The notes under the pieces were generated by a model. That model was given only the letters and a program-made list of their open reading frames with translations, searched no databases and was not told the DNA's origin. A stretch of DNA of 64,000 bases from Geothrix sp. PMB-07 (GTDB lineage: Bacteria > Acidobacteriota > Holophagae > Holophagales > Holophagaceae). This document shows positions 2,952 to 60,541 of this stretch, one piece after another. The stretch is from contig NZ_CP132333.1 in the NCBI RefSeq assembly GCF_030758935.1, positions 2,976,992 to 3,040,991 of the forward strand, in the 5' to 3' direction. Position numbers and translations under genes: made by a program. Each line of letters starts with the position of its first letter. Positions within the stretch are counted from its first letter, which is position 1.

Positions 2952-3060
2952 CCTACCTTATGTTTTGGTTAACCGAGCAAGTTGTGAGCCCTTCCTACGC
3001 GCCTTACGGCGACTAGAGAACAACGGTCTGACAAGAACTCGGGACCTTAGAGGAGTCGAC

Positions 3061-18615: not shown

Positions 18616-18652
18616 CTTGGTCGACTCCTCGAAAAGGGTGAGCACTGCAGTG

Positions 18653-42500: not shown

Positions 42501-42608
42501 CTCATCTTCAGCCAGGTGCTGACCCTCTATACCACACCGGTCATCTACCTCGCCTTCGACCGCCTCGCACGCCGCTTCCGCGGCCTGCGCAAAGCCCCGA
42601 CGAAATGA
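39519..42608 (+). CDS. mdtB: RND multidrug efflux transporter, MdtB-like
   Basis: A 1,029-residue inner-membrane proton-driven pump of the HAE-1 family with the two-fold RND layout: TM1, large periplasmic loop, TM2-6, a second loop and TM7-12. Family motifs include [19 protein letters not shown] with the proton-relay Asp pair in TM4 and the matching [15 protein letters not shown] region in TM10. It starts at GTG 39519 with AGGAGG at 39507-39512 and overlaps the next pump gene by four bases (ATGA). In MdtABC, MdtB and MdtC assemble as a mixed trimer. Confidence 0.93.
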
Positions 42609-45600: not shown

Positions 45601-45667
45601 CACGCCCGTCATCTACCTCTACATGGACCGGGCCCGACTGCGCTGGGAGCGGTGGCGGAGGAGATAA
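42605..45667 (+). CDS. mdtC: RND multidrug efflux transporter, MdtC-like
   Basis: A 1,020-residue RND pump paralogous to the preceding gene. It shares TM4 [19 protein letters not shown] and TM10 [19 protein letters not shown], where the basic pair KK replaces EK. The start overlaps the mdtB stop (ATGA), so the two are made together in about equal amounts, as the heterotrimeric MdtBC pump needs. No TolC-type outer-membrane factor gene follows; the next gene is a permease beyond an inverted repeat, so the channel must come from elsewhere in the genome. Confidence 0.93.
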
Positions 45668-45822: not shown

Positions 45823-47199
45823 ATGCTCCCCCAGCCCAGCCTGCGCCGGACCCTCTCGTCCCTCGAGTACTTCGCCTTCGGATTCGGTTCCATGGTGGGC
45901 GTGGGCTGGGTGGTGCTCATCGACGACTGGCTGGCCCGGGGCGGCCCTGCGGGCGGCATGCTGGCCTTCCTGCTGGGCGGTCTCGCGCTGCTGCCCACCG
46001 CCCTCACCTACGGGCGCATGGCCCGCGAGATGCCTGATGCCGGCGCCGAAGTGGCCTACACCGAGGGGGTGTTTCCCGAGGTGCTGAGCTACGCTACGGG
46101 CTGGGTGATGGTGCTCGCCTATTTCATCGTCTGCCCCTGGGAGGCCGTGGCCATCGGCAACCTGCTGGCCCGGGCCCTGCCTGCCGTGAATCAGCTGCCT
46201 CTCTACAGCGTCGGCGGGAAGGCCATCTACCTGCCGCGCCTGCTGGCGGGGCTGGCCCTGGTGGCCCTCATCGGCACCCTGAATTACCGCGGCATGCAGC
46301 TCAGCTCGCGCCTGCAGAAGACTGCCACCTTCGGCATGCTGCTCCTGTTCCTGGGCTTCACCACCCTGGGTTTGGCCAAGGGTCAGGCCCTGAACCTGCG
46401 GCCCCTGTTCGCCCATCCCGGCGTGGCGGGGGCCGGGCTGTCCGTCCTGCTCATGCTCCAGGTGATGCCCTACTTCATGACCGGCTTTGAATCGGTGGTC
46501 AAAGGCTCGGAGGAGGCCGAAGCGGGCTTCGATCCCAGAGGCTTCGGCCGCGCCATGGTCTCCGCCCTGCTGGCGGGCAGCCTGTTCTATGTGTTGGTGA
46601 TCTTGGTGGTGGCCTACATCGCCCCCTGGAAAGGGCTGGTGGCCGGCAAGTTCGGCACCGAACAGGCCTTTGAACGGGCCTTCGGCTCCCATTTCATCGC
46701 CCAGCTCATTCTTTTCGCGGCCCTGCTCTCCCTGCTGAAGGTCTTCAACGCCATGTTCGTGGCCGCCACCCGCCTGCTCTACGCCCTTGGCCGGCGAGGC
46801 CTGATCCACCCGGCCATGGGCACCGTCCATCCCCGCTTCCAGACCCCCGGCGGCGCCGTGCTGCTGCTGGCGGGCCTCACCGCCGCGGTGAGCTTCCTGG
46901 GAGACGCGGCCCTCCTTCCCATCACGGATGTGGGCTCCCTGGCCGTGGGCTTGGGCTGGCTGGCTACGTCCCTGGCCGCCCTGAGGCACCTCAAGCGGGC
47001 CCCCCAGCCCGATCCGGCAGGCCTCGCCCTGGCGGCCCTGAGCGCCGTGGTCAGCCTGGCCCTCATCGCCATGAAGGCCCTGCCCAGCGTCCCTGGCAGC
47101 TTCACCCACACCGAATGGACCGCCTTCGGCGTCTGGGTGGCCCTGGGCGCCCTGCTTTGGACCGGCTGGCGGCGCCCTTCGGAGCGGAAAAGCAACTGA
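45823..47199 (+). CDS. APC-superfamily amino acid permease
   Basis: A 458-residue integral membrane protein with about 12 hydrophobic helices. The first helix has the APC signature (LEYFAFGFGSMVGVGWVVLI), with the broken helix typical of substrate binding; MPYFMTGFESVVKGSEEAE in the TM6 region is also family-typical. It probably imports or exchanges an amino acid or amine by proton symport; specificity is unknown. The ribosome binding site is weak (GGGG before ATG 45823). It stands alone between two inverted-repeat elements. Confidence 0.88.
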   Translation: MLPQPSLRRTLSSLEYFAFGFGSMVGVGWVVLIDDWLARGGPAGGMLAFLLGGLALLPTALTYGRMAREMPDAGAEVAYTEGVFPEVLSYATGWVMVLAYFIVCPWEAVAIGNLLARALPAVNQLPLYSVGGKAIYLPRLLAGLALVALIGTLNYRGMQLSSRLQKTATFGMLLLFLGFTTLGLAKGQALNLRPLFAHPGVAGAGLSVLLMLQVMPYFMTGFESVVKGSEEAEAGFDPRGFGRAMVSALLAGSLFYVLVILVVAYIAPWKGLVAGKFGTEQAFERAFGSHFIAQLILFAALLSLLKVFNAMFVAATRLLYALGRRGLIHPAMGTVHPRFQTPGGAVLLLAGLTAAVSFLGDAALLPITDVGSLAVGLGWLATSLAALRHLKRAPQPDPAGLALAALSAVVSLALIAMKALPSVPGSFTHTEWTAFGVWVALGALLWTGWRRPSERKSN

Positions 47200-47200
47200 T

Positions 47201-47282
47201 CACCACCAAGACTCTAAGCCACCAAGAAAGGCAGAAATGCCCTTTTCCCTTGGTTCTTGGTGCCTTGGTGTCTTGGTGGTGA
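47201..47282. repeat. CACCAAG-type inverted repeat, copy 2
   Basis: Left arm 47201-47230 and right arm 47249-47282 are complementary and made of CACCAAG-like units, around a loop rich in pyrimidines. Same unit, arm order and orientation as the element at 14288-14367, over 30 kb away. It lies between the APC permease gene and aspS and may also serve as a transcript-end hairpin. Confidence 0.8.
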
Positions 47283-47353
47283 ATCCCTTTGAATGGTGGT
47301 TTCAAACCATCCCGGCTTGAGCCAAGTCCCTCCGAGTGCGATCCTGGAAGGCT

Positions 47354-49324
47354 ATGAAACTCGATCGGCTTGGCGACTTCTCACGCTCCCACCGCAACGG
47401 CGACTTGCGTCTCGATCACGCGGGCCAGACGGTGCGCCTGCTCGGCTGGTGCCGCCGGGTGCGCAACCTGGGCTCGCTGGTGTTCCTGGATCTCCGCGAC
47501 CGCTGGGGCCTGGTGCAGCTGGTGGCCAACGAGGAGACCGCCGATCCCGAGCTGCTGGCCAAGCTCAAGGCCGTGCGCAGCGAGTTCGTGCTGGCGGCAG
47601 AAGGCGTGGTGGCCGAACGCGAGAGCAAGAACCCCAACATGGCCACGGGTGACATCGAGATCCGCCTCACGGGCCTGAAGATCCTCAACACCGCCGCGCC
47701 GCTGCCCTTTCCCCTGGAAGACGAGCACGTGGGCGAGGATCTGCGCCTCACCTACCGTTTCCTGGATCTGCGCCGCGAGCAGCTGCAGCGCAACATGATC
47801 CTGCGCAGCGAGGCCTCCAACATCATCCGGAACTACTTCCGGAAGAACGATTTCGTCGAGTTCGAGACGCCCATCCTCGGCAAGTCCACCCCCGAGGGAG
47901 CTCGCGATTACCTGGTGCCCAGCCGGGTCCACGCCGGGCAGTTCTTCGCCCTGCCCCAGAGCCCCCAGCTCTACAAGCAGATGCTGCAGGTCTCGGGCTT
48001 CGAGCGCTACGTGCAGATCTGCCGCTGCTTCCGGGACGAGGATCTGCGCGCCGACCGCCAGCCCGAGTTCACCCAGGTGGACGTGGAAATGAGCTTCGTC
48101 CGCCAGGAGGACATCCAGGCCCTCATCGAAGGCCTGATGGTGGAGCTCTGTCCCCTGGTGGGCCAGAAGGCCGTCGCCCCCTTCCAGCGTCTGCCCTACA
48201 AAGACGCCATGGAGTGGTACGGCTCCGACAAGCCCGACCTCCGCTGCAAGCTCAAGATCCAGGACGTGACGAACCTCTTTGCCCAAAGCGAGTTCAACCT
48301 GTTCCGTGCCGCCTCCGACTCCCAGGGGCAGCGCCGTGTGCGTGGCCTCTTCTTCCCTGGCGAGGCTGCCGGTGCGTACAGCCGCAAGCAGCTGGACGAA
48401 CTGCAGGAGACGGCCAAGCAGCTGGGCGCGGGAGGCCTGCCCTACGTCAAATGGGGCAAGGATGGCCTGGCCTCCAGCTTCAAGAAGTTCCTCACGCCCG
48501 AACTCGAAGCTGCGCTGAAGGCCACCCTAAGCATCGGCGGCGAAGGCCTCGCCATCTTCGCCGTGGGCACCGATGACCAGACCTCCCGGGTGCTGGGCGA
48601 CCTGCGTCTGAGGCTGGCCAAGGCCTTGGGTCTCCTGGATGAATCCGCCTTCGAGTTCCTGTGGGTGGTGGATTTCCCCCTCTTTCAATGGGATGAGGAT
48701 GATCAGCGCTTCGTGGCCTGCCACCACCCCTTCACCAGCCCCCATCCCGAAGACCTCGACCTGCTCCAGTCCAATCCCGGCGCCTGCCGCGCCGTGGCCT
48801 ACGACCTGGTGCTCAACGGCTATGAGCTGGGCGGCGGCAGCATCCGCATTCACGATGCCGAAACCCAAAGCCTCATGTTCCGCACCATCGGCATCAGCGA
48901 CGCGGAGGCCCGGGCGAAATTCGGTTACCTGCTGGATGCCCTGTCCTTCGGCGCTCCGCCCCATGGCGGCCTCGCCCTGGGCCTCGACCGCCTGGTCATG
49001 CTGCTGGCGGGCGAGGACAACATCCGTGAGGTCATCGCCTTCCCCAAGACCGCCCAGGCCCGCTGCCTCATGACCGATGCCCCCAGCCCCGTGGATGAGC
49101 GGCAGCTGCGGGATCTGCACCTCCTGACTGACGCCAAGCAGACCTACCGGGTGGGCGCCGTGTTCTTCGAGAGTGCCGAGGGCGGGAATGCCGAGCTGCG
49201 GGGCCAGGCCCTGCAACAGATCACCCAGCTGACCCCCCGCCAGGCCCAGGGCCTGGTCACCCTGGACGCCCAGGGCCAGATCCTCGACGCCCAAACCCTC
49301 AGTGGCCCCACTTTTGAGTTCTGA
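47354..49324 (+). CDS. aspS: Aspartyl-tRNA synthetase with C-terminal extension
   Basis: A 656-residue class II synthetase. An N-terminal OB anticodon-binding domain (VRLLGWCRRVRNLGSLVFLD) is followed by the catalytic core: motif 2 CRCFRDEDLRADRQPEFTQ, the bacterial GAD insertion (about 285-420) and motif 3 GGLALGLDRLVMLL. The enzyme normally ends soon after the PSPV segment (DAPSPVDERQLRDL, about residue 585); here about 65 further residues follow, so the protein is longer than the usual 580-600. The start is ATG 47354, with GGAAGG before it. It may charge tRNA-Asp only or also tRNA-Asn, depending on whether asparaginyl-tRNA synthetase exists in the genome. Confidence 0.94.
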   Translation: MKLDRLGDFSRSHRNGDLRLDHAGQTVRLLGWCRRVRNLGSLVFLDLRDRWGLVQLVANEETADPELLAKLKAVRSEFVLAAEGVVAERESKNPNMATGDIEIRLTGLKILNTAAPLPFPLEDEHVGEDLRLTYRFLDLRREQLQRNMILRSEASNIIRNYFRKNDFVEFETPILGKSTPEGARDYLVPSRVHAGQFFALPQSPQLYKQMLQVSGFERYVQICRCFRDEDLRADRQPEFTQVDVEMSFVRQEDIQALIEGLMVELCPLVGQKAVAPFQRLPYKDAMEWYGSDKPDLRCKLKIQDVTNLFAQSEFNLFRAASDSQGQRRVRGLFFPGEAAGAYSRKQLDELQETAKQLGAGGLPYVKWGKDGLASSFKKFLTPELEAALKATLSIGGEGLAIFAVGTDDQTSRVLGDLRLRLAKALGLLDESAFEFLWVVDFPLFQWDEDDQRFVACHHPFTSPHPEDLDLLQSNPGACRAVAYDLVLNGYELGGGSIRIHDAETQSLMFRTIGISDAEARAKFGYLLDALSFGAPPHGGLALGLDRLVMLLAGEDNIREVIAFPKTAQARCLMTDAPSPVDERQLRDLHLLTDAKQTYRVGAVFFESAEGGNAELRGQALQQITQLTPRQAQGLVTLDAQGQILDAQTLSGPTFEF

Positions 49325-49458
49325 GGCCTTCCCTGGCAACGGCGGAACCTTCGCCGCTGAGCCTCCACCCATGAAGGGACCCTCCCTTGGGGGGAACGAC
49401 CCGATTCCCGCGTAAACTGTAGGCTTGGCCCTTCGGGGTGATTTGTCTTGGAGGCTCC

Positions 49459-50841
49459 ATGTTCCTGAAGGTCCCCGGTCCAGGGGAAGCGGCCATCGCC
49501 CCGATGCGTCCTGCGATGGCATCCCCGGGCGGATTCCTGCGCCGCCTGCGGATCCTCGGCGTGGCCCTCCTGCCCCTGCTGCTCGTTCTGGCCTGCTCCA
49601 AGCACAAGGACACGGCCTCCGACCCCGGCAAGCCGCCGGCCATCACCACCGCCCCCGCGGATGCCAGCACCGTGACCGGCCGGAGCGTCAGTTTCTCGGT
49701 GACCGCCACCGGCGAGATCACCCTCCGCTACCAGTGGAACAAGGATGGCGTCGACATCCTGGGCGCCATCGGCTCCACCTACACGATCTTCAGTCCCAAG
49801 ATGCAAGACGCTGGCAAGTACGCGGTGACGATCACCAACCCCAACGGCAAGATCACCAGCACTGCGGCCACCCTGACCGTGGCACAGGCCCTGATCTTCA
49901 GCGCCCCCATGGGCCTCGCCACCGATGCCACAGGCAACACCTACGTCTCCGACATGGATGACCACACCATCTGGAAGGTGAGCGCCACCAATCAGAAGAC
50001 CCTGCTCGCTGGGGCCTCGGGCCTGCCCGGCGCCGTGGACGCCAAGGGCGGCGCGGCGCGCTTCAACACCCCCGGCGGCTTGGCCCTGGATGCCTCCGGC
50101 AACCTGCTGGTGGCCGACACGGGCAACCACACCATCCGCAGCATCGCCCCCGATGGCACGGTGACCACCCTGGCCGGCAGCGCCGGACAGGTGGGATCCG
50201 ACGATGGCAACGGCCCCGCAGCCCGCTTCAACAGCCCCTTCGGCCTGGCGGTGGGCAGCGGCGGGAGCGTCTACATTTCTGACACCCAGAACCACACCAT
50301 CCGCTTGCTGGCCCCCAATGGCGATGTCACCACCTTTGCGGGCCTGGCCGGCAAACCCGGACAGGTGGACGGCCCCCGGGCCAGCGCCCAGTTCAACCAG
50401 CCCAATGGTTTGGCCTTGGCATCCAACGGCACCCTCTACGTGGCCGACTACGGCAATTCCGTGATTCGCGCCATCTCCGCCAGCGGCACGGTGTCATTGC
50501 TGGCAGGCCAGTACGCCGCCCATGGTCTCGCCGATGGCACGGGCACCGGAGCCCTTCTCTATCAGCCACTGGGTATCTCGCTGGACGCCTCCGGCAACCT
50601 CTACGTGGCCGATTCCGCCAACCACACCATCCGCCGGGTCACCAGCGCCGGTGCGGTCTCGGTGGTGGCCGGTTCCGCCACCCTCGGCAACGCGGACAGC
50701 ACTGGCGCTTCCGCCCAGTTCTTCCTGCCCTGCGGCGTCGCTGTCAATGCGGCGGGCAACGTGGTGGTGGCCGATACCAACAACCACATGCTGCGCAGCC
50801 TGACCCCCGCAGGCGTGGTGACGACGCCCACCGCCCCTTGA
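49459..50841 (+). CDS. NHL-repeat lipoprotein with Ig-like domain
   Basis: A 460-residue lipoprotein. The start at ATG 49459 has TTGGAGG upstream. A hydrophobic stretch ends in the lipobox LLLVLAC, with Cys the lipidated residue. An Ig-like domain (about 60-135; VSFSVTATGEITLRYQWNKDG, DAGKYAVTITNPNG) is followed by at least five NHL-type blades (LALDASGNLLVADTGNHTIR, LALASNGTLYVADYGNSVIR, ISLDASGNLYVADSANHTIR) forming a beta-propeller. Such proteins are often surface or periplasmic binding scaffolds. The N terminus before the hydrophobic segment is unusually long (about 30 residues), so a later start is possible. Confidence 0.85.
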   Translation: MFLKVPGPGEAAIAPMRPAMASPGGFLRRLRILGVALLPLLLVLACSKHKDTASDPGKPPAITTAPADASTVTGRSVSFSVTATGEITLRYQWNKDGVDILGAIGSTYTIFSPKMQDAGKYAVTITNPNGKITSTAATLTVAQALIFSAPMGLATDATGNTYVSDMDDHTIWKVSATNQKTLLAGASGLPGAVDAKGGAARFNTPGGLALDASGNLLVADTGNHTIRSIAPDGTVTTLAGSAGQVGSDDGNGPAARFNSPFGLAVGSGGSVYISDTQNHTIRLLAPNGDVTTFAGLAGKPGQVDGPRASAQFNQPNGLALASNGTLYVADYGNSVIRAISASGTVSLLAGQYAAHGLADGTGTGALLYQPLGISLDASGNLYVADSANHTIRRVTSAGAVSVVAGSATLGNADSTGASAQFFLPCGVAVNAAGNVVVADTNNHMLRSLTPAGVVTTPTAP

Positions 50842-50863
50842 GCCATCGGTTGCACTCGCTGCA

Positions 50864-50886
50864 CAGGCCCGCCATTGGCGGGCCTG
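50864..50886 (+). terminator. Hairpin terminator after the NHL lipoprotein
   Basis: A perfect CAGGCCCGCC/GGCGGGCCTG stem with a three-base loop, 23 bases after the stop. The T-rich tail is weak. Confidence 0.7.
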
Positions 50887-50932
50887 CTCATGCCACAATC
50901 AATGTTCACGACGACGAGAGCCGAGGATCCCG

Positions 50933-51499
50933 ATGGTTGAATCGCCAGGCAAAGCCCCCAAAAAGGTGAAGGAGAAGCGGCAGACGCCTGAGGAGCGTCA
51001 GGCTCTGATGCGTTACAACCACATGATGTACGGCCCCACGGCTGGTGAGTTCAGGCCCGCCCCCAAGAAGGTGAACCTCGGCAGCGCCTACCTCAACCAT
51101 CCCAAGTTCCAGGCCCTCATGACTGCCTTCAAGAAGGGCACCGCCTACCAGTTCGACGTCACCGACAAGGCCAAGGTCTACACCATCGCCACCGACGGCA
51201 CCCAGATCCTCTTCGATGGGAAGACCCTCTATTATTCCCGGCCCTCCAACCGCTACGAAGACCACCTGCTGCTGGATCGCAGCGTCGCGGTGGCCTATCA
51301 GGCCATTGACGCCCTGGTGCACCTGGCCGTGGCCGTGCTGCGCAGCCTGCCCGACCTGGGCACCCCCCAGCTGAGCTACCTGAACCACGAGTTCATCTAC
51401 GGTGCAGAGCCCCTCGAAACCGGCATCGCCACCTCCGGCCCCAACCTCCTCATCGGCTCCTTCAAGCACAGCAAGGTGCAGGAGAAGGCGAGGAAGTAG
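50933..51499 (+). CDS. Hypothetical cytoplasmic protein (188 aa)
   Basis: No family is recognised. The N terminus is very basic and disordered (GKAPKKVKEKRQTPEERQAL), followed by an alpha/beta region (FQALMTAFKKGTAYQFDVTD, KVYTIATDGTQILFDGKTLY, LLLDRSVAVAYQAIDALVHL). It is monocistronic: a hairpin precedes it at 50864 and another follows at 51518. Codon use looks like that of the neighbouring core genes, so it is likely native. Confidence 0.7.
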   Translation: MVESPGKAPKKVKEKRQTPEERQALMRYNHMMYGPTAGEFRPAPKKVNLGSAYLNHPKFQALMTAFKKGTAYQFDVTDKAKVYTIATDGTQILFDGKTLYYSRPSNRYEDHLLLDRSVAVAYQAIDALVHLAVAVLRSLPDLGTPQLSYLNHEFIYGAEPLETGIATSGPNLLIGSFKHSKVQEKARK

Positions 51500-51517
51500 G
51501 GCAGCCGCGCGCCTTGT

Positions 51518-51547
51518 TGCCCCCTTCCACCTGGTGGTCGGGGGGCA
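51518..51547 (+). terminator. Rho-independent terminator
   Basis: TGCCCCC (51518-51524) pairs with GGGGGCA (51541-51547) around an inner CCACC/GGTGG stem, followed by TTTCC, 18 bases after the 188-residue gene. Confidence 0.8.
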
Positions 51548-51571
51548 TTTCCTCGCCCTAAATGCTTCCCG

Positions 51572-51913
51572 CTACAATGCGGGCACTGCCAAGGCCAGAC
51601 CTGTCGCCTTCGACAGGGCATCCCAGAGGATGCCTACCACCGCATTCAGGACTTTCTCGATGGTGACCATCAGGATCCCGTGCAAGGTCATCACGAAACT
51701 CTTGACCATGTCCTGGAGCCCATCCAGGAAAAACTGGCGGGTGTCGTCCGTTATCTGGCCCGTGGCGATTCCTCCCGCAACGAGGTCCGCCTGCTGCGCG
51801 ATGGCCAGGAGTTGCCTTTCCGAAAACCCGCTGAGGGTCGTGACATCCGCTTTCAGGATCCCGCTGGCCGCATCCTTCATGCTCTGGACCAATACCTTTA
51901 AATCGAGGGCCAT
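51572..51913 (-). CDS. Small helical protein of the hydrolase cluster (113 aa)
   Basis: A 113-residue product starting at ATG 51913, where GGAGG lies exactly five bases upstream. It is predicted by eye to be almost wholly helical, with amphipathic and hydrophobic segments (KSFVMTLHGILMVTIEKVLN, AVVGILWDALSKATGLALAV) that could associate with or insert into membranes. I do not recognise the family. It is the last gene of a four-gene minus-strand cluster (membrane protein, alpha/beta hydrolase, lipoprotein, this protein). Membrane-active helical proteins in such clusters can be effectors or structural parts; no assignment is possible. Confidence 0.6.
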   Translation of the reverse strand: MALDLKVLVQSMKDAASGILKADVTTLSGFSERQLLAIAQQADLVAGGIATGQITDDTRQFFLDGLQDMVKSFVMTLHGILMVTIEKVLNAVVGILWDALSKATGLALAVPAL

Positions 51914-51935
51914 CTCCGCCTCCAAATAGATAGAG

Positions 51936-52466
51936 CTAGCGTTTCAGGAAATTCTCATAGCTGATTGCCTGATCGAAATAGATCGATACCTGCCCTTTGA
52001 AAGCAGCAGCGACGGTCGGATTGATTCCATGGGCCTGATCCGTTTCTTTCATCTTCTGGAATGCGATGGAAACCTGCTGAACGGAATGCACGCTCGGGGC
52101 GATGTTTGGATCCTCTTCAAGCGGCTTGGAACCCCTCTGGATCAGTAATTTATTGATGTCGTCCGTCACCTTGTTTTTCGGCACGGGACGGGCTCCAATG
52201 GCCAGCGCGAGGGCATCCAGTTTCCCAATGATGGAATTGTATTTGTCCTCTCGGCTCGGAAACGTTTCCCGCGCCACGCCACCGGACACCGCGGCGATCA
52301 GGGTCATGGAATCGGTGCTGGCCTGGGTCAAGCCCTGGACGACCGCTTGGTCATAGGCCGGTGCCAATTGAACCTTGCAGCCCATGCTTGCAAGGACGCC
52401 CCCCAGAAAGAGCGTCCTCGCCCAGAGGGTGAATGCATGGTGTTTGCGCGTGTGAGCAGGCTCCAT
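51936..52466 (-). CDS. Putative lipoprotein of the hydrolase cluster (176 aa)
   Basis: ATG 52466 has AAGGAG six bases upstream. The N terminus is a signal sequence (AFTLWARTLFLGGVLASMGC) ending in a lipobox-like SMGC, so Cys would be lipidated. The rest is helical and soluble (VVQGLTQASTDSMTLIAAVS, YNSIIGKLDALALAIGARPV). No family is recognised. The reading frame also stays open upstream and joins the preceding hydrolase, which would give one 499-residue protein, but the good internal start, the lipobox and the reading of the hydrolase tail in another frame all argue for two genes. Confidence 0.7.
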   Translation of the reverse strand: MEPAHTRKHHAFTLWARTLFLGGVLASMGCKVQLAPAYDQAVVQGLTQASTDSMTLIAAVSGGVARETFPSREDKYNSIIGKLDALALAIGARPVPKNKVTDDINKLLIQRGSKPLEEDPNIAPSVHSVQQVSIAFQKMKETDQAHGINPTVAAAFKGQVSIYFDQAISYENFLKR

Positions 52467-52519
52467 GGGAGCTCCTTGAAAGGGTTGAGGATGTGCCCAG
52501 AACGGCGCGGGCCTTTGGG

Positions 52520-53435
52520 TTAGGGCAAGGACCAGCGAGTTGCGAAGAAATCCGCCGACCAGCAGGGTTTCCAGGCTTTGGTGTTGGTGAGCGTGAGCGG
52601 CGCGGGCGGAACGACCGGCGCGTCCAGGTTGAATTCCGGCGAATCCGCCGGAGGGATTGTGATGGTCCCCGGGAAGCCCCCCAAGGACGCCGCTGGTGGT
52701 CAGGTAATCGCTATGCCCGTAATCCCAGCCATCCGGCAGCCTTCCATTCCGGATGACGTTTTCAGGGACCGTGGACGATGGTCCGCTGCGCCCCAGCGCC
52801 GATTTCAGGTTGGGATCCCCCCGTTCGAGCAGCCCCCCCACGAGATTGCCTGCTGGGTAGGCCAAGGCCAGCACATGGTCCTTCATGGAGTAGAGAACGG
52901 AAACATGCTTGATCTTTTTGGCGGCGTCCTGGAACTCCCTGTTCAGCGTGTCGTCTTCGATGGCAGGGGCCATCAGGTAGAGGTGGCGCACCGTTTTCCC
53001 CTCCGCCAATTGGCGGATGGCCTGCAACATCACTCGCACGCCCAGTGAGTGGGACCCGAAGGAAATGGATGCGGTGTCCTGGAAGTGCTGGTCCAGGAAG
53101 CGGCCTAGGAGGGTGCCGCTTTTCTGGGCCTCCCCACCTTCCCAAATGTAGTCCAGCGCCATGGGAATGATGCAGTCACCGGGCCAAAGCACTCCGATGT
53201 AGAGCGGCATGGGTTCCAACTTCAGGTGCTTCTTCCACTCATTCAACTTGGCGGTGCCATCGGGCCGGTTGTTTTCAAATCCATGTGTCATCAGGAGCAC
53301 ATCGCGTCCAGACACGGCTTGAACCAATAAGGCCGGATCCAGGACGGTCCCATCGCCGTCAGTGACCTTCAGCGTGCCGATGGGGCCACCGTGGGACCAG
53401 GCCCTCAGATCAATGAACCAGTTCGCATCGCTCAT
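52520..53435 (-). pseudogene. Alpha/beta hydrolase (DUF900-like) with an apparent one-base frameshift
   Basis: A cytoplasmic or surface esterase-like protein: LLMTHGFENNRPDG is the oxyanion region, SFGSHSLGVRVM the nucleophile elbow (Ser in SHSLG, with Ser in place of the first Gly of GxSxG), SMKDHVLAL the probable Asp and YGHSDYL the His. At a run of six C (plus strand, 52677-52682) the open frame leaves sensible sequence. Removing one base restores a hydrolase-like continuation (VLGGFPGTITIPPADSPEFN, then LDAPVVPPAPLTLT) ending at TAA 52520-52522, giving about 304 residues. The cause may be a sequencing error, a real mutation or programmed frameshifting. It starts 4 bases after the membrane protein gene with AGGTAGG upstream. 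Confidence 0.75.
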
Positions 53436-53438
53436 GGC

Positions 53439-54137
53439 CTACCTTTTGACGGCCTGCAAGGCCTTGGCGGCCGTGGTGAGGCTGCCCGCAAGATCCTTTG
53501 CCATGGGCGCCAAGGGCGTGGCCAACAGGCCCGTGATCAATGCCAGCACATAGTGCTTCGAACCATTTTTATCGAAGACCGGTCCTGATAAAGAGACCGC
53601 GGCGGCCTCGGCCAGGATGACGGCCGCCAGACAGGCGTAGACTTTGCACGCGTTGCGGTAGCGCTGATCGGCGCGTTGGTAGGCGCGATCAATCAGGCTC
53701 GAAAGAAGCAGGTCAAAGCGACCGTAAACATTGAGTTCGTCGGGCGTCAGGGCCTTGCCCTTGTTGAGGCTGTCGGCAACCGACTCCATCACCTCTGGAT
53801 CTACACCCGTCACGCGAGCCAGGCCCGCTGCCGTCTTCACGTTCAAGCGGAGCTTGATGAGGGACTTTGCGACGCTTTTTTGATCGGCCACAGGCGCACC
53901 GTTCAGCCAGTTCGAGCGGAGGGTGTCGGAAATGGCGGTTCGAGAAATGGCGGAGTCCGCGGGAATTCCCTCTTCGTTGGGCGCCAGCTGGCTGAGCAAG
54001 GCGGCAATGAACGCGAAGCCCGAATTGGATATACCACCTCCGAAAGCCTTGGTGGCATCCACGAGGCCGAACGCCGCCGTGCCGAGTGCACCAATGGCGG
54101 TAATGGCAGTGGCAAGGTAGGTCGGGGTTATGTCCAT
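53439..54137 (-). CDS. Membrane protein of the hydrolase cluster (232 aa)
   Basis: ATG 54137 has AGGAG upstream and is preferred over 54164. Hydrophobic segments lie near the N terminus (YLATAITAIGALGTAAFGLV), about residue 40-55, about 165-185 (NACKVYACLAAVILAEAAAV) and 200-215 (YVLALITGLLATPLAPM), around a helical soluble middle. I do not recognise the family. It is the first gene of the minus-strand cluster and is followed after four bases by the hydrolase gene, so they are surely coexpressed. Topology suggests a membrane platform for the hydrolase. Confidence 0.7.
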   Translation of the reverse strand: MDITPTYLATAITAIGALGTAAFGLVDATKAFGGGISNSGFAFIAALLSQLAPNEEGIPADSAISRTAISDTLRSNWLNGAPVADQKSVAKSLIKLRLNVKTAAGLARVTGVDPEVMESVADSLNKGKALTPDELNVYGRFDLLLSSLIDRAYQRADQRYRNACKVYACLAAVILAEAAAVSLSGPVFDKNGSKHYVLALITGLLATPLAPMAKDLAGSLTTAAKALQAVKR

Positions 54138-54445
54138 GCTGCGCTCCTTTGGCTGGTTGGGCATTAGGGTGAGTTAGAGCGTGACGCGGAGGAATGGCCG
54201 CTTTGCTCCATTGGCCAGGTCAGGGCGGATCCCAACCACGAAGCCTAAGGAGATGGGCTTTTCGGAGGCATATATGAATTTCAGGGCGGATGTTATCGCC
54301 ATGATCAACCCTTTTCCCCGGGTTACCGCCGAACGGTGCATTTCCCATCCTCAACGGGAATCCGGGGTCAAATCACAGGCGGGAAACCAGCTGAAGCGAG
54401 CCGGGCCGTGACTCATCCCGGCTCAATTCAGCTCAGAATCAAGGC
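54138..54445. other. Intergenic region between divergent transcripts
   Basis: About 300 bases with no convincing gene; one short plus-strand frame (54181-54411) lacks a ribosome binding site and a protein-like pattern. A small AAGCC/GGGCTTTT hairpin lies at about 54240-54262. The region must hold the promoters for the minus-strand cluster and the SprT-like gene. Confidence 0.5.
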
Positions 54446-54841
54446 ATGACCCTCACCCTCCGTCACCGCACCCAGGCCATCCTCCAACAGGCGGGCTGGG
54501 ACTTGGCTCCACCGCCTGTGGTCTGGTCGCCGCGCATGGCGCGCTGCGCGGGGCTCTTCGTGGTGGAGAAGGATGCGCGCGGCAAGTGGCATCCGGAGAT
54601 CCGCCTGTCGATTCCGCTGCTGCGCCGCCGGGACTGGCCCTGGCCGCAGCAGGTGTGCGGGATGAACTGCCATGCGCCGGAGGAAGTGCAGCAGCGGATC
54701 CTGGAGCACGAACTCATCCACTACAAGCTCTGGATGGATCGGGAGAAGGATTGGGGGCACAGCGAACGCTTCCGGCAGTTGGCTTGGGAGGTATTCGGGC
54801 ATCAGGCGATCACTCACGGCATCGGCTCGGAGGAAGGCTGA
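54446..54841 (+). CDS. SprT-like zinc metalloprotein
   Basis: A 131-residue protein of the SprT/Spartan-like gluzincin group. The HExxH motif is His88-Glu89-Leu-Ile-His92 (EHELIHYKLW) and the third ligand is likely His105 in DWGHSERFRQLA. The bacterial SprT group is suspected of proteolysis of DNA-protein crosslinks or of a chaperone-like role; the biochemical activity of short bacterial forms is not established. The C-terminal zinc ribbon found in longer members is absent, and the protein is shorter than typical SprT (about 165). Confidence 0.83.
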   Translation: MTLTLRHRTQAILQQAGWDLAPPPVVWSPRMARCAGLFVVEKDARGKWHPEIRLSIPLLRRRDWPWPQQVCGMNCHAPEEVQQRILEHELIHYKLWMDREKDWGHSERFRQLAWEVFGHQAITHGIGSEEG

Positions 54842-54870
54842 CCGATCAGCTGTGATCGGCCGCCGAGGTG

Positions 54871-55470
54871 TCACCCTTGGGTGGCCCGGTTCAGCCTCGC
54901 GCGGATGCGGCTGAGGGAGACGGCGGTGATGCCCAGGTAGCTGGCGAGATCCTTGAGGGGGACGCGGCGGGCCAGGTCCGGATGGGCTGCGAGAAAGGTT
55001 TGATAGCGTTCCAGGGGTTTGAGGATCAGCAGGTCGCGCTCGCGGATTTCCTTGCGCAGGGCGTAGCGCTTCACAGCGCCGGTGAGGCAGCGCTGCCAGG
55101 CCAGGTGCCGCTGGCCCAGCTGCTCCAGGCAGGCAAGCTCCACCCGTTCCAATTCACTGGCCTCGAGGGCCACCACCGCGAAGCTGGTGAGGCCGCCGGG
55201 TTCCAGTGCGGCCATGCTGGCGAAGAGGCCGCCCGCCTCGCCGAAGGATTTGATGCGCTCGGTGCCATCGGGCAGCCAGTAACACAGCTTCACCAGCCCC
55301 TTGCGAACCACATAGATGTAGGGATGCGTCTCGCCTGCCTGGAACACCGTCTCTCCAGCAGCCACCCGCACCATCTTCAGGTGCTGCAGGCAGTGTTCCT
55401 GTTCAGGCAGAGGGCAACCCGCGAGTTGTTCAAAGAGCTGCAGGGCTGAGCTGACGGCTGGCTTAACCAT
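54871..55470 (-). CDS. Crp/Fnr-family transcriptional regulator
   Basis: A 199-residue protein with an N-terminal cyclic-nucleotide-binding-like jelly roll (FQAGETHPYIYVVRKGLVKL, FGEAGGLFASMAAL), a dimerisation helix and a C-terminal winged helix (VPLKDLASYLGITAVSLSRI). Cys residues are not grouped as in the FNR Fe-S cluster, and the cAMP phosphate-binding Arg-Ser pair is not evident, so the effector is unknown. A 16-bp dyad CTTAAC-N4-GTTAAG lies over its own start codon. It is divergent from the darcynin-family gene, 85 bases apart, and probably controls it. Confidence 0.88.
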   Translation of the reverse strand: MVKPAVSSALQLFEQLAGCPLPEQEHCLQHLKMVRVAAGETVFQAGETHPYIYVVRKGLVKLCYWLPDGTERIKSFGEAGGLFASMAALEPGGLTSFAVVALEASELERVELACLEQLGQRHLAWQRCLTGAVKRYALRKEIRERDLLILKPLERYQTFLAAHPDLARRVPLKDLASYLGITAVSLSRIRARLNRATQG

Positions 55471-55477
55471 CGTTAAG
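55462..55477. promoter_or_regulatory. FNR-box-like dyad over the crp/fnr start codon
   Basis: CTTAAC and GTTAAG with a CATC spacer. The 5-4-5 core TTAAC-N4-GTTAA has the architecture of Crp/Fnr family sites (TTGAT-N4-ATCAA for FNR). Binding would block the regulator's own start and control the divergent gene. Confidence 0.65.
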
Positions 55478-55555
55478 GACGCGCCGATCCAGGCGTCAGA
55501 TCATCAGGGCAGCCGGACATGCGATCAGTCTGGCACGACCCGCGGGAGCCCAGCC

Positions 55556-55885
55556 ATGAACACCTGTTTCCTCCTCGTCAACGCCCTGCCCGCCTGGTTG
55601 CGGCTTTCCCGGGCCGAGCGCCAGCGGCTGTTCGAGTCGGAGTTGCTCAGTCTGGTGCCCAAGCATCCCGGCCTGACGCTGCGGTTCTTCGATGCGGAGG
55701 CCTATTCCGCCGTGTGCAGCGACATTCTGATGATTCAGCCGCCCGATGCCCGCGCCTTGCACTTCTTCATGGAGGGCCTGCGGGATTCCGCCCTGCTCAC
55801 CGAGCCCTACTTCGAGGTGCGACACATCATTCCCTGCCTTGAGAATGGCTTTCAGGAATACGAAAAAGCCTTGGCCGGTGTCTGA
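55556..55885 (+). CDS. Darcynin-family protein
   Basis: A 109-residue protein matching the darcynin pattern: LVNALPAWLRLSRAERQRLF, RFFDAEAYSAVCSDILMIQP, FFMEGLRDSALLTEPYFEVR and IIPCLENGFQEYE. Darcynins are a small dimeric alpha/beta-barrel-like family of unknown function. The gene starts 85 bases from a divergent Crp/Fnr regulator whose dyad could control it. Recognition is from memory of the family pattern, not from a search. Confidence 0.75.
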   Translation: MNTCFLLVNALPAWLRLSRAERQRLFESELLSLVPKHPGLTLRFFDAEAYSAVCSDILMIQPPDARALHFFMEGLRDSALLTEPYFEVRHIIPCLENGFQEYEKALAGV

Positions 55886-55947
55886 ATGGGGTGGGTGAAT
55901 CCGACCATGACGGATCGCTGACGGCATGGCCGGGGTACACTCCAGCC

Positions 55948-57444
55948 ATGAACGCCTGGGATCCCGCCTTCCTCGCCGCCCCGCCCCTGACCGAAGCCGA
56001 GGACCGGCTGGCTCCGGCCCACAAGATCTACGCCCTGCGCACCTTGCCCCTGGGCGACATCAGGGCCGTGGGCTTCGACATGGACCACACCCTGGCCCGC
56101 TACCGGTCGCCGGAGATCGATGATCTGGCCTTCAAGAAGGCCGCACGACTGCTCGTGCGTGAGCGCGGCTACTCGCCCTGGCTGCTGGAGATTGACTACA
56201 ACCCGTCCTTCGCCGTGCGCGGTCTGGTGCTGGACGGCCTGAGGGGCAACCTGCTGAAGCTCAACCGGGAACGCCAGGTGGTGCGGGCCGGCCACGGCAG
56301 CCTGGCCATGACCCGGGCCGATATGGAGACGGTGTACGGCCGTCGCCGCCTGTCCACGGCGGCCAAGGGTTTTCGCAGCATCGACACGCTGTTCGAGATT
56401 CCCGAAAGCCACCTGTATGCCCAGATGGTGGATGGCTTTGACCGAGGTCTGTTGAAGGCCGAGAACTACCTTCAGCTGTTTCACGACGTGCGCTGGGCCA
56501 TCGACACCGCCCACCGCAACGGCGAAATGAAGGCGGAGATCCTTCAGCACAAGGATTTCTTCATTCCCCATGATCCCCAGCTGGCTCTTGCCCTGGGGCG
56601 CCTGAAGCGGGCGGGGAAGAAGCTCTTCCTGCTCACCAACAGCGAATGGAGCTTCACGGATGGCGTGCTCAGCCACCTGCTCAACGGCCAGGACGAAGCC
56701 CACCCAGCCTGGACCGATTATTTCGATCTCGTGGTGGTCAGCAGCCGCAAACCCGGATTCTTCCTCGATGCCCCGGAGGCCCTGCCACTGGAAGGTCATC
56801 CCCGCTGCTTCATCGGCGGCCACACGGCCTGGCTGGAGGGTGCGCTGGACGCCCGGGGCGAACAGGTGCTCTACGTGGGCGATCACATCTACGGCGACGT
56901 ACTGCGCTCCAAGAAGAACGCCTCCTGGCGCACCCTGTTGCTGGTGCCGGAGCTGGAGCAGGAGCTAAAGCTCCTGGAGGCCAAGGCCGACGATCTGCGG
57001 GAACTGCTCCGTCTCGAGACCGCCCGGCGGCGCACCCTGCGCCGGGCTTCGGTGCTGCAGGATCAGCTGAAGCGCAACCGTGTGCGCCGCCATGTGCTGG
57101 GACAGCGGCTCAGTGCCGATGCCACCGCGGCGCTGGATCATGAGGCGACCCAGCTGGCCACCAGCGCCGAGGCCCTCCGGCACCGCGCCGAGGTGCAGGG
57201 CCTCGAACTCCAGGGCCTCTCCGCCGCCGTGGAAGCGACGTTCAATCCCACCTGGGGCCCCATGTTCCGCGATCGCGACGAACTGACCCGCTTCGCCGAC
57301 CAGCTGCAGCAGTTCGCCTGCGCCTACACGGGCAAGGTGGGGAACCTCTACATGTACGATCCGCTGGCGACGGTCTATGGGCCCATTCCCACCCTGCCCC
57401 ACGAGCGGGCAGGCGGCCTTCTCACTTCGCTTTCGCGCCCATAG
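55948..57444 (+). CDS. HAD-superfamily 5'-nucleotidase (IMP/GMP type)
   Basis: A 498-residue cytosolic purine 5'-nucleotidase-like enzyme. The HAD catalytic motif is Asp44-Met-Asp46-His (VGFDMDHTLARY), motif II is LFLLTNSEWSF, and the acidic motif IV is YVGDHIYGDVLRSKK. The middle holds the large cap, and the C-terminal ~120 residues include a helical segment (ELLRLETARRRTLRRASVLQ). It dephosphorylates IMP/GMP in homologues. ATG 55948 is chosen from the start of conserved sequence; the open frame extends to 55891. Its 3' end overlaps the convergent hybrid kinase gene by 23 bases. Confidence 0.88.
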   Translation: MNAWDPAFLAAPPLTEAEDRLAPAHKIYALRTLPLGDIRAVGFDMDHTLARYRSPEIDDLAFKKAARLLVRERGYSPWLLEIDYNPSFAVRGLVLDGLRGNLLKLNRERQVVRAGHGSLAMTRADMETVYGRRRLSTAAKGFRSIDTLFEIPESHLYAQMVDGFDRGLLKAENYLQLFHDVRWAIDTAHRNGEMKAEILQHKDFFIPHDPQLALALGRLKRAGKKLFLLTNSEWSFTDGVLSHLLNGQDEAHPAWTDYFDLVVVSSRKPGFFLDAPEALPLEGHPRCFIGGHTAWLEGALDARGEQVLYVGDHIYGDVLRSKKNASWRTLLLVPELEQELKLLEAKADDLRELLRLETARRRTLRRASVLQDQLKRNRVRRHVLGQRLSADATAALDHEATQLATSAEALRHRAEVQGLELQGLSAAVEATFNPTWGPMFRDRDELTRFADQLQQFACAYTGKVGNLYMYDPLATVYGPIPTLPHERAGGLLTSLSRP

Positions 57445-59269
57445 CCCGGTCGATGAGGGGCTCGAGTTCGGCACTCGTGAAGGGCTTCTTGAGGAAATCC
57501 ACGAAGCCCTGGGCCAGGGCCTGCTCCCGCGACACGGGCAGCGCGTAGCCGCTGGAGAGAATTCCGGGAAGGTGGGGCCTGAGGGCGCGCATGGCCTGGA
57601 AGGCCTCGACCCCGCCCATGCGGGGCATGGTGGCGTCGAGAATCACCAGATCGAAGGCCTCGGGCCGCTGGCGGAACAACTCCAGCGCCTCCAGGCCATC
57701 CAGGGCCGTCACCACCTCCAGGCCGAACCAGTCCCGCAGCATCTCGGCCAGCACCTCGCAGAGATCCGCCTCGTCATCGGCCAGCAGCACGAGGTTGCGG
57801 CCAAGGCGGTGCTCCTCCGCTGGAACCAAGGATGGGGCCTGCCCTTCCGGGCAAGGAAGGTGGATGCGGAATACGCTGCCCACCCCCGGAATGCTCTCCA
57901 CCTGGATGCCGCCCCGGTGGCCGCGGATGATGCCCAGGGCCGCCGCCAGGCCCAGGCCGCGGCCCAGATCCCGCGTCGAGAAGAAGGGATCGAAGATCTT
58001 CGGCAGGGTATTGGGCTCGATGCCGTGCCCCTGGTCGGAGACTTCCAGCACCACGTAGGGCCCCGGTTCCAGGGGATCGGGCCAGTGCCCCAGGGCCAGA
58101 TCCTGGGCATCGACGTGGCGCACATAGGTCCGCACCCGAATGCCACCGGCCGTGGCACTGGCATCCTCAGCATTGGCAAGGAGCCCCTCCACCACCCGCC
58201 CCAGGAGCACGGGATCCACCAGCACCTTGGGCAGGTCCTTCGCGAGATCGCGGATCACCGGCACACCGATGCGATCCAGGCATTCGCTGACGAGGGCGCT
58301 CAGTTCGCGGGGTTCCGGGCGCCGGAGGTCGCCGCCGGAGCAATGCAGGATGTCCCGGCTCAGGCCCGTGGCGCGGTCGAGGCCGCCCTTCAGCCGCTGG
58401 AGATACATCAGGGTGCGTGAATGCGCCGGGGCGGCGGCGGCGGCCATCTCCAGATTCGCCACCATCATCTGGAAGATGTTGTTGAAATCGTGGGCCAGCC
58501 CCCCGGCCAGCATGCCGAGGCTTTCCATTTTCTGGGACTTGGCGAGGGCTTCTTCCGCGTGGCGCATCTCGGTGACATCCACCAGGCAGCACACGGCTCC
58601 ATGGACGCGCCCATTGCGATCCCGCAGGGGTGTGGCATAGGCCATCACATGGCGGAGCGAACCATCCTCGAACACCAGGTCCAGGGCCTGGCCGCGCACT
58701 TCACCGCCCTGGATCGCCGCCCGCTGGATGGGGTGATCCTCCCGCCGGAGTTCCGTCCCCGCCCGCTGCAAGGCCGCATGGGCAGGCCATATAAAGGGGG
58801 CCGAAGGGCCCTGATCGTCAGGCTCCGGCATGCGCAACAGGGCCCAGGCCGCCGGGTTGCCCTGAATCAAGCGGCAGTCCTGCCCCTCGGCGATCCACAG
58901 GGGAACGGGCGTGGCCGTCATCACCGCGCCCAGTTTGTCCGCTTCCGCCCTGGCCTCGGCCCGAGCCTCCTCCAGGCGCGCAGCCTGCACCTCCTTGGAG
59001 CGGAAAATGCCCTGGATGAGCAGCACCCCAGACAGCATGAGGGCAGAGATCAGCAGGCCCAGCACCTCGTTGGGCAGCATCGGGGCAGAGATGCCCTTCT
59101 CCAGCAGGTCCACCAGCACGAACAGGCGGCGGACGGCCATCAGCACCAAGGCCATGGCCAACAGGAACCACGCCAGGGGCCGACCGGCTGTCCGGCTGAT
59201 GCGCATTCCAAAACCCGCCGCCGTGATCTGCAGCAGGATCGAGAGGAGGATAACCGTCAGATTCAGCAC
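57422..59269 (-). CDS. Hybrid sensor histidine kinase with C-terminal receiver
   Basis: A 615-residue membrane kinase. Three hydrophobic helices (about 4-24, 33-53 and 67-87) are followed by a coiled linker, a PAS-like domain (about 110-235), HisKA with His260 (GGLAHDFNNIFQMM), an HATPase (GLLANAEDA, DQGHGIEPN, GRGLGLAAALGI) and a receiver with Asp545 (LVILDATMPRMGG), acidic pair Asp498-499 and Lys595. The H-box HDFNN is typical of PAS-rich kinases. The receiver likely passes phosphate to an output protein elsewhere, or buffers it. There is no neighbouring DNA-binding regulator; a single-domain receiver gene at 14562 is one candidate partner. Confidence 0.92.
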   Translation of the reverse strand: MLNLTVILLSILLQITAAGFGMRISRTAGRPLAWFLLAMALVLMAVRRLFVLVDLLEKGISAPMLPNEVLGLLISALMLSGVLLIQGIFRSKEVQAARLEEARAEARAEADKLGAVMTATPVPLWIAEGQDCRLIQGNPAAWALLRMPEPDDQGPSAPFIWPAHAALQRAGTELRREDHPIQRAAIQGGEVRGQALDLVFEDGSLRHVMAYATPLRDRNGRVHGAVCCLVDVTEMRHAEEALAKSQKMESLGMLAGGLAHDFNNIFQMMVANLEMAAAAAPAHSRTLMYLQRLKGGLDRATGLSRDILHCSGGDLRRPEPRELSALVSECLDRIGVPVIRDLAKDLPKVLVDPVLLGRVVEGLLANAEDASATAGGIRVRTYVRHVDAQDLALGHWPDPLEPGPYVVLEVSDQGHGIEPNTLPKIFDPFFSTRDLGRGLGLAAALGIIRGHRGGIQVESIPGVGSVFRIHLPCPEGQAPSLVPAEEHRLGRNLVLLADDEADLCEVLAEMLRDWFGLEVVTALDGLEALELFRQRPEAFDLVILDATMPRMGGVEAFQAMRALRPHLPGILSSGYALPVSREQALAQGFVDFLKKPFTSAELEPLIDRAMGAKAK

Positions 59270-59332
59270 CGGAGAACGCGCCCGAAATGGCTTATCGGCA
59301 GCTGAATCGAACTGGGTGAATGCCGAGGTAAC

Positions 59333-60541
59333 CTACCCTCGAACCCCCACTTTCGCCTGGGCGATCACCTGCCGGATGGCCGCGACCACCTGGTCCTGGT
59401 CCGCCTCGCTGAGACCGGGCCAAAGCGGCAGGCTCAGCAGCCGCTCGCCGCTCCACTCGCTGTGGGGCAGGCCCTCCTTGGGCAAGTGCTGCGGGTTGGC
59501 CGCGTAGAAATCCCGGTACCAGGGATGCACGTGGGCCGGGCGGTAGTGAATGCCCGTGCCGATGTTCTCCTCCTTGAGGGCGGCCACGAAGGCGTCGCGG
59601 TCCAGGCCCAGCTTCTCGGGGTGGATGCGCAGCACGAAGAGGTGGAAGCAGTGGCCCAGGTTGTCATCGCCGGGCCAGGGCAGCATGACTTCCTCGATGT
59701 CCTTCATCAAATCAAGGTAGCGGTGGAAGAGCACGCCGCGCCGGGCGTTGAAGCCATCCAGCTTGCCGATCTGGTGCAGGCCCATGGCCGCTTGCAGATC
59801 CATGAAGTTGGCCTTGCGGGCAGGCTCGAAGACCTCGGTGTGGGGGCTGCCTTCCTTGGCGAAGCGCTTCCAGGCATCGCGGTCGATGCCGTGGAAACGG
59901 AGGCGCTTGATGCGGCTTTCGTACTCATCGTTGAAGAAGGCGATGGCGCCGCCTTCGCCGGTGGTCATGTTCTTGTTGGGGTGGAAGCTGTAGACCGTCA
60001 TGATCGAGCGCGGATCGCCGCCGATCTTGGTGCCGCGGTGGTGGGCGCCCATGGCCTGGGCGGCATCCTCGATCACCCAGAGGCCGTGCTTTTCGGCGAT
60101 CTGCCAGATGGCGGCCATGTCGCAGGGCAGGCCCGTGAGGTGCACGGGGATGATGCCCTTGGTGCGCGGCGTGATGGCCGCCTCGATCTTGGCGGGATCG
60201 AGGTTCATGGTGACGGGATCGATGTCGACCAGCACGGGCACACCGCCCTGCAGCACCACGGTGCTGAGGGTGCTCACCCAGGTCAGCGACGTGGTGATGA
60301 CTTCATCGCCCGGCTGCAGGTTCAGCACCTGCATGGTGATTTCCTGGGCCGTGGTGGCGCTGTTCATGGCCAGGCAGTGGGGCACCCCGTTGTAGGCCTT
60401 CAGAAGCTCTTCAAACTTGGCCGACTTGGGCCCCGTGGTGATCCACCCGCTGTGGATGGTGTCGATGATTTCCGCGATTTCCTCTTCGCCCACCATGGGA
60501 CGGGTGAAGGGGAGGAATTCCTGGCGGCGTTGGTAGGACAT
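59333..60541 (-). CDS. DegT/DnrJ/EryC1/StrS-family PLP aminotransferase
   Basis: A 402-residue sugar aminotransferase. PLP-linked Lys is in SFHPNKNMTTGEGGAIAF and the family signature is SGWITTGPKSAKFEELL; further motifs are MNSATTAQEIT, VIEDAAQAMGAHHRG and IGTGIHYRPAH. It transfers an amino group to a nucleotide-bound keto-sugar, as in ArnB or PglE-type routes, for surface polysaccharide or modified lipid synthesis. ATG 60541 has GGAG upstream. No other sugar-nucleotide genes lie beside it, so its pathway is not known. Confidence 0.9.
   Translation of the reverse strand: MSYQRRQEFLPFTRPMVGEEEIAEIIDTIHSGWITTGPKSAKFEELLKAYNGVPHCLAMNSATTAQEITMQVLNLQPGDEVITTSLTWVSTLSTVVLQGGVPVLVDIDPVTMNLDPAKIEAAITPRTKGIIPVHLTGLPCDMAAIWQIAEKHGLWVIEDAAQAMGAHHRGTKIGGDPRSIMTVYSFHPNKNMTTGEGGAIAFFNDEYESRIKRLRFHGIDRDAWKRFAKEGSPHTEVFEPARKANFMDLQAAMGLHQIGKLDGFNARRGVLFHRYLDLMKDIEEVMLPWPGDDNLGHCFHLFVLRIHPEKLGLDRDAFVAALKEENIGTGIHYRPAHVHPWYRDFYAANPQHLPKEGLPHSEWSGERLLSLPLWPGLSEADQDQVVAAIRQVIAQAKVGVRG

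What the first reader, a model, noticed from the sequence alone, without database searches (positions are those of the whole stretch)
52677..52682. One-base frameshift in the hydrolase gene at a six-C run
The open frame runs from the hydrolase straight into the next lipoprotein, giving a false 499-residue fusion. One fewer base in the C6 run (G6 on the coding strand) restores protein-like sequence to a TAA at 52520. Homopolymer position suggests an assembly error, phase variation or programmed slippage that would switch between a short hydrolase and a hydrolase-lipoprotein fusion.
Basis: seen in the sequence. Interest (0 to 1): 0.6.

Follow-up and report, generated by a model that had tools for sequence, protein, structure and literature searches.

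The report
Stray extra base in hydrolase gene
A rarely seen enzyme gene carries one extra base near its end compared with an intact relative, so it appears fused to the next gene; this looks like an ordinary recent slip of DNA copying or a sequencing slip, not a designed switch.

Summary
A 6-C run lies at 52677-52682, a 499-codon ORF runs 53435-51936 (minus strand), and the neighbouring frame runs from the run to TAA at 52520. One good relative decides the anatomy. In Geomesophilobacter sediminis (L006) the hydrolase is a 304-aa stand-alone gene of 915 nt, against 916 nt in the window from ATG to TAA 52520. The shifted-frame tail matches its C-terminus (33/49 identical, E=2e-18); the ORF-frame tail matches nothing in it. 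The same four-gene order is present there with a separate lipoprotein, so the 499-residue fusion is spurious. The shift lies in 52676-52699, which holds the run. Three of three close homologues are separate hydrolases without such a run. No stimulator structure was found and the tract is short, so programmed slippage and phase variation have no positive support. Assembly error and a recent real slip cannot be told apart without reads. In 221 genes intact against a congener, 98 G/C runs of six or more lie in frame, so the assembly is not grossly homopolymer-faulty. The presumed catalytic residues lie upstream of the shift. Interest is low.

The parts
52677..52682 (-). G6 run on the coding strand (C6 on +), most likely site of the one-base excess; the shift is bounded to 52676-52699
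52683..53435 (-). DUF900-type alpha/beta hydrolase, in-frame part (251 codons), contains invariant S130, D186, H241
   Evidence: Pfam PF05990 E=5.3e-11, 42.9 bits vs cut-off 20.5, query the 499-aa ORF; alignment A1
52520..52681 (-). C-terminal tail of the hydrolase in the neighbouring frame, ending in TAA 52522-52520
51936..53435 (-). 499-aa open frame: spurious hydrolase-lipoprotein fusion
   Evidence: 3 of 3 close homologues are unfused
51936..52466 (-). separate lipoprotein-like gene with its own ATG, ribosome-binding-like AAGGAG and lipobox-like ..ASMGC (motifs read by eye, no predictor run)
   Evidence: sequence; homologue L006 5153-5605, 27% over 93 aa, E=2e-4
53439..54164 (-). 241-aa protein, membrane protein by eye (no predictor run), partner gene upstream of the hydrolase
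   Evidence: paired with the hydrolase in window, L006, L003, L056
51572..51925 (-). 117-aa small protein, last gene of the cassette
   Evidence: homologue L006 5630-5971, 22% over 89 aa, E=5e-8
51511..54399 (.). segment not aligned to the congener G028, holding the four-gene cassette, between a 188-aa gene and a SprT-like gene

Best explanation
The locus is an acquired four-gene cassette (241-aa putative membrane protein, DUF900 alpha/beta hydrolase, lipoprotein, small protein). Its hydrolase should be a separate protein of about 304 residues ending at TAA 52520. This assembly carries a single extra base, most likely by lengthening a five-G run to six, about 155 nt before that stop. The extra base throws the last ~52 codons out of frame and lets the frame run by chance into the downstream lipoprotein gene. 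The extra base is not conserved and has no signs of a regulated switch. It is either a recent replication slip in this strain or a sequencing/assembly slip, with odds about even. If real, the cell would make a hydrolase with an intact catalytic core, a foreign C-terminus and a lipoprotein extension; the lipoprotein could still be made from its own start. Shown: excess base relative to the one relative with a comparable tail, frame of the tail, separate lipoprotein in that relative. Inferred: horizontal origin, direction of change (gain here rather than loss there), exact position within the 24-nt interval, translation outcome.
For: L006 homologue: 79% identical, 304 aa, 915 nt against 916 nt. 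Shifted tail matches it with E=2e-18, ORF-frame tail not at all. Tail differences by codon position in the shifted frame 14/15/27 in 54 codons, so third positions change most, as in the core at 39/25/123 in 245 codons. Separate lipoprotein gene after a 237-nt gap in L006. Three of three close homologues (304, 287, 284 aa) are stand-alone. No G or C run of five or more in the L006 gene, none of six or more in L056, and one C6 in L003 at its very end, so the run is not a shared feature. Shift bounded to 24 nt holding the run.
Against: The tail comparison rests on one relative; the C-termini of L003 and L056 differ too much to help. Codon usage alone prefers the shifted frame in the tail only weakly (-3.8 against -10.0 bits over 52 codons). 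The gene is unusually rich in G runs (three of six or more in 916 nt, expected 0.15; 4 of 342 sampled genes have three), which a supporter of a mutable locus could cite, though the test was chosen after looking. 25 of 396 genomes of the phylum have a profile match, most of them weak, and these were not examined for fusions.
Confidence: 0.9

Rival explanations
1. The extra base is a sequencing or assembly slip; the living strain has an intact 304-residue hydrolase gene.
For: Position in a homopolymer; not shared by the relatives. [quoted passage not shown] The tail still looks maintained.
Against: In 221 genes (179 + 42) intact over >=90% of their length against the congener G028, 98 G/C runs of six or more lay in frame, and the two frame changes found in G000 by this search did not lie at such a run. 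Limits: breaks in the last tenth of a gene pass unseen; the reverse search (G000 proteins against G028) flagged 5 more frame changes that were not resolved base by base, one of them with a C6 run within 150 nt.
Confidence: 0.45
2. The extra base is a real recent replication slip in this strain, fixed or drifting, giving a hydrolase with a wrong C-terminus (an incipient pseudogene or a tolerated change).
For: Good assembly behaviour in the congener samples. The cassette is accessory: its hydrolase was found in 2 of 47 genomes of the genus, the other only 36% identical. Real gene decay exists in this genome, e.g. an aldo/keto-reductase-like gene with a 2-nt loss and a ~270-nt insertion. G-run-rich gene.
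Against: No second isolate of the species was available; no further damage was seen in the tail, which fits an error or a very young mutation.
Confidence: 0.47
3. Phase variation: run length flips between five and six G in the population, switching between a 304-aa hydrolase and a 499-aa fusion (C-terminal switching).
For: C-terminal phase variation by poly-G is proposed for Helicobacter canadensis (PMC2823697, passages), and a C6/C7 tract in bvgS of Bordetella pertussis is phase-variable (PMC1891110, passages). The frame stays open into a lipoprotein. The gene has three G runs of six or more.
Against: Tract of six, against >=10 bp in the eight H. canadensis C-terminal cases. Tract absent at this place in the homologues. 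Relative keeps a separate lipoprotein. The open linker is expected by chance in 21% of shuffles.
Confidence: 0.05
4. Programmed ribosomal frameshifting or transcriptional slippage on the G6 run yields both proteins.
For: A glycine tRNA on GGG could re-pair one base on within the run (reasoning only).
Against: Slip site not conserved. No downstream structure beyond chance (z -0.25; 75 of 200 shuffles fold as well, 87 nt tested). No conserved fusion partner.
Confidence: 0.02

Closest known systems
Singleton frameshifted genes (fs-genes) in the GeneTack survey, PMC3711429 (passages read)
   Same: No frameshifted homologue found among the close relatives; protein similarity on both sides of the shift.
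   Different: The survey cannot tell error from mutation for a given gene either; here a congener comparison gives a rough check on assembly behaviour. GeneTack itself was not run.
bvgS C6/C7 tract of Bordetella pertussis, PMC1891110 (passages read)
   Same: One-base change at a short C/G run in a coding gene.
   Different: There C6 and C7 alleles were shown in strains and in a mixed culture; here one sequence and no homologue with the tract.
C-terminal phase variation, Helicobacter canadensis, PMC2823697 (passages read)
   Same: Tract near the 3' end; a change would swap the C-terminus.
   Different: Tracts >=10 bp with length variation in the reads there; six G and no reads here.
DUF900 alpha/beta hydrolases (PF05990), PMC11878206 (one passage read)
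   Same: Family match above the curated cut-off.
   Different: The review gives alpha-proteobacteria as their home and function unknown; here a relative in Geomesophilobacter, and a 241-aa-type partner gene.

Membership tests
DUF900 hydrolase (PF05990) | Profile score above the gathering cut-off | tested here: met
   42.9 bits against 20.5, residues 42-192
DUF900 hydrolase (PF05990) | Serine hydrolase catalytic residues | tested here: inconclusive
   S130 in an HSLG motif, D186 and H241 invariant in 4 of 4 aligned proteins; their catalytic role is inferred, not assayed
Singleton frameshifted gene | Protein similarity on both sides of the shift in two frames | tested here: met
   Core 79%, tail 33 of 49, E=2e-18 in the other frame, same relative
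Singleton frameshifted gene | No homologue with the same frame transition | tested here: met
   0 of 3 close homologues shifted; the weak profile matches were not examined
Phase-variable homopolymer locus | Long tract (minimum 7 nt in PMC3711429; >=10 in PMC2823697) | tested here: not met
   Six; shorter tracts can vary (bvgS C6)
Phase-variable homopolymer locus | Variable tract length among cells or strains | not testable with these tools
   No reads, no second isolate
Phase-variable homopolymer locus | Tract kept in homologues | tested here: not met
   No such run in L006 or L056; L003 only a C6 at its 3' end
Programmed frameshifting or slippage | Conserved slip site and frame transition | tested here: not met
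   0 of 3 close homologues
Programmed frameshifting or slippage | Stimulatory downstream structure | tested here: not met
   z -0.25 on 87 nt; not all programmed sites need one

The most novel reading that the evidence does not exclude
The hydrolase gene is a low-rate contingency locus: its G-run-rich coding strand lets the cell flip between a 304-residue hydrolase and a membrane-bound hydrolase-lipoprotein fusion, changing where the enzyme sits.
Probability: 0.04. Interest if true: 0.5.

Novelty: new member of a known kind. Interest (0 to 1): 0.13.

Why it matters
Mainly a caution: the 499-residue protein should not be taken as a domain fusion in databases. The more useful by-product is a rare four-gene cassette built round a DUF900 hydrolase and a conserved 241-aa-type partner, shared at 79% hydrolase identity with a genome outside the window's genus (G070 is not among the genus's matches), at a site that holds different DNA in other species of the genus.

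Tried and rejected
Coding potential alone to fix the frame of the tail: too weak in this segment. Structure prediction of the relative's hydrolase to see whether the tail belongs to the fold: mean pLDDT 41.1, tail blocks at or below 32, so it says nothing. PADLOC on five proteins of the region: no family. NCBIfam and PHROGs on seven proteins (four of the window, three of L006): only weak matches, none above an NCBIfam cut-off. Solved structures: weak matches to Bacillus lipase A, best E=0.0029. The idea that the insertion site is a defence hot spot: 12 hand-picked large ORFs from three inserts were scanned with Pfam. Eleven match (two-component, thiamine-diphosphate and FAD enzymes, an AraC-type regulator, Ig-like, TonB-plug, sugar transporter, glycosyl hydrolase 17, RHS-repeat with peptidase M23) and one has no match, which looks like general cargo; PADLOC was not run on the inserts, so defence genes there are not excluded. 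Two apparent frame breaks in the second congener sample were over-long reference ORFs, not breaks. Direct repeats of 9 or more between the two ends of the island: none. One literature search on slippage and one on the likely genus were used only as listings.

Full report
OBSERVATION. The coding-strand sequence shows six G at 52682-52677. The open frame from ATG 53435 runs without a stop to 51936 and codes for 499 residues. The window lies in one 4,242,863-base contig at G000:C1:2976992-3040991, and a search with 1001 bases of the locus matched once in it. Read from just after the run, the neighbouring frame goes to TAA at 52522-52520.

WHAT DECIDES THE FRAME. The one scan of genome contigs gave one relative: Geomesophilobacter sediminis strain Red875, locus L006, 79% identical over query residues 1-250. 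Its hydrolase is a 304-aa ORF of 915 nt; the window's gene from ATG to TAA 52520 is 916 nt. The shifted-frame tail matches the last part of the L006 protein at 33 of 49 residues, E=2e-18. The ORF-frame tail has no alignment to it. In ungapped register the tail keeps 35 of 54 positions (stop included) and the core 196 of 245, and third codon positions differ most in both. The shift must lie downstream of a +1-frame TGA at 52702-52700 and upstream of the match, that is in 52676-52699, which holds the run.

THE FUSION IS NOT ANCESTRAL. L006 carries the same gene order: 241-aa protein, hydrolase, lipoprotein-like 151-aa gene starting after a 237-nt gap, 114-aa gene. The lipoproteins are distant homologues (27%, E=2e-4), as are the small proteins (22%, E=5e-8); the 241-aa proteins share 62%. 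The two further close homologues are also stand-alone: 287 aa in G018, same genus, 36%, and 284 aa on the Sinorhizobium fredii plasmid pSfreNXT3a, 34.5% in tblastn. Both have a relative of the 241-aa gene just upstream (256 and 223 aa, 28% and 42% identical).

HOW RARE. The hydrolase was found in 2 of 47 genomes of the genus, own genome included, in 2 of 60 genomes of a wider draw, own included, in 1 of 141 genomes of the order of G070, which is the L006 genome itself, in 1 of 72,556 plasmid records, and in no phage record or viral contig. A profile search of 396 genomes of the phylum gave 25 with a match at E<=0.001; only G000 and G018 scored above 80 bits (next 78.2), and the weaker ones were not examined for fusions. 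The lipoprotein was found in 1 of 47 genus genomes, the own one.

INSERTION SITE. Against the congener G028 the alignment stops at 51510 and resumes at 54400, and G028 has 22.3 kb there instead. Of 20 further stretches fetched from the genus (three were shorter than 19 kb), 11 show both flanking genes (188-aa gene and SprT-like gene), 6 only the SprT-like gene, and 3 neither. In 8 of those 11 the aligned parts of the genes are 22-69 nt apart, and in 3 they are separated by about 1.5, 7.7 and 11.2 kb. The cassette thus sits at a site that varies between species. The segment is poorer in G+C: 53.6-63.6% in the 500-base windows starting 51500-54250, against 62-71% in the other windows of 46000-60000.

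ASSEMBLY ERROR OR REAL. I compared G028 genes with G000. In the first sample (584 kb of G000, 460 kb of G028) 179 genes were intact over at least 90% of their length. Ten others were partial in the strict search and nine in the laxer one. Two of these nine showed a change of frame and were inspected. One is a truly damaged aldo/keto-reductase-like gene (2-nt loss plus an insertion of about 270 nt). The other is a one-base difference at the 5' end of a gene, where the start is uncertain. The other seven had no neighbouring match in another frame and were not looked at further. In the second sample (280 kb against 120 kb) 42 genes were intact and 2 were not full; both were over-long reference ORFs. 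Intact coding held 81 + 17 = 98 G/C runs of six or more, and neither frame change lay at such a run.

LIMITS OF THAT TEST. Breaks in the last tenth of a gene pass unseen (the present one, at codon 252 of about 305, would have shown). The reverse search, G000 proteins against G028, gave 171 full, 10 partial and 5 frameshift-like cases. These five may be breaks in G028, over-long G000 ORFs, or breaks in G000; they were not resolved base by base, and one of the five has a C6 run within 150 nt. A first DNA-level pass over 84 kb of alignment listed 11 net frame-changing gap groups touching predicted ORFs; by eye they lie near ORF ends or in ORFs predicted in only one genome. So the assembly is not grossly faulty, but a single slip cannot be excluded. 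With 0 in 98 the 95% upper bound for a per-run fault is about 3% (my arithmetic), provided the unresolved case is not one.

SWITCHING. The tract is six long and not found at this place in the homologues. GGGGGG is depleted in the window (30 overlapping matches, 160.6 expected from shuffles). Against this, the hydrolase gene has three sense-strand G runs of six or more in 916 nt where 0.15 are expected (Poisson P=5e-4, chosen after looking). The other two are in frame. There is no unusual fold downstream (z -0.25). Papers: C-terminal phase variation in H. canadensis with poly-G tracts of at least 10 bp (PMC2823697, passages); the C6/C7 change of bvgS (PMC1891110, passages); [quoted passage not shown] DUF900 function unknown (PMC11878206, one passage).

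CONSEQUENCE IF REAL. The invariant S130, D186 and H241, taken here as the catalytic residues by inference, lie before the shift at codon 252, so the catalytic core would be kept. The lipoprotein has its own start and ribosome-binding-like sequence (by eye). The effect would be a changed C-terminus plus a lipoprotein extension. A structure prediction was too poor to judge the role of the tail.

VERDICT. A real one-base excess in this sequence and a spurious fusion, with an ordinary cause; the two ordinary causes are left at about even odds.

Noticed in passing
window 51511-54399: Insert between a 188-aa gene and a SprT-like gene; other species of the genus have 22-69 nt, or other inserts of 1.5 to 22 kb, at the same place.
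   Followed up: partly
window 53439-54164 and 52683-53435: Gene pair (241-aa putative membrane protein plus DUF900 hydrolase) conserved in four records including a Sinorhizobium plasmid; function unknown.
   Followed up: partly
L097 about 17285-18622, insertion about 17681-17952 (G000:C1 about 2814276-2815613): Aldo/keto-reductase-like gene broken by a 2-nt loss and an insertion of about 270 nt whose two ends look like inverted copies of each other, like a small mobile element (the gene label is recalled).
   Followed up: partly
window 2255-2263: A nine-C run beside a small transposase-like ORF (2420-2884 minus) and a large RHS-like ORF (2965-8517); labels from recall.
   Followed up: no
window 52399-52839: Four separate G runs of six or more on the coding strand within 441 bases; the relative's hydrolase has none of five or more.
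   Followed up: partly
window 39519-45667: Two neighbouring 3-kb ORFs, each also about 70% identical to the counterpart of the other in G028, which points to a tandem duplication.
   Followed up: no
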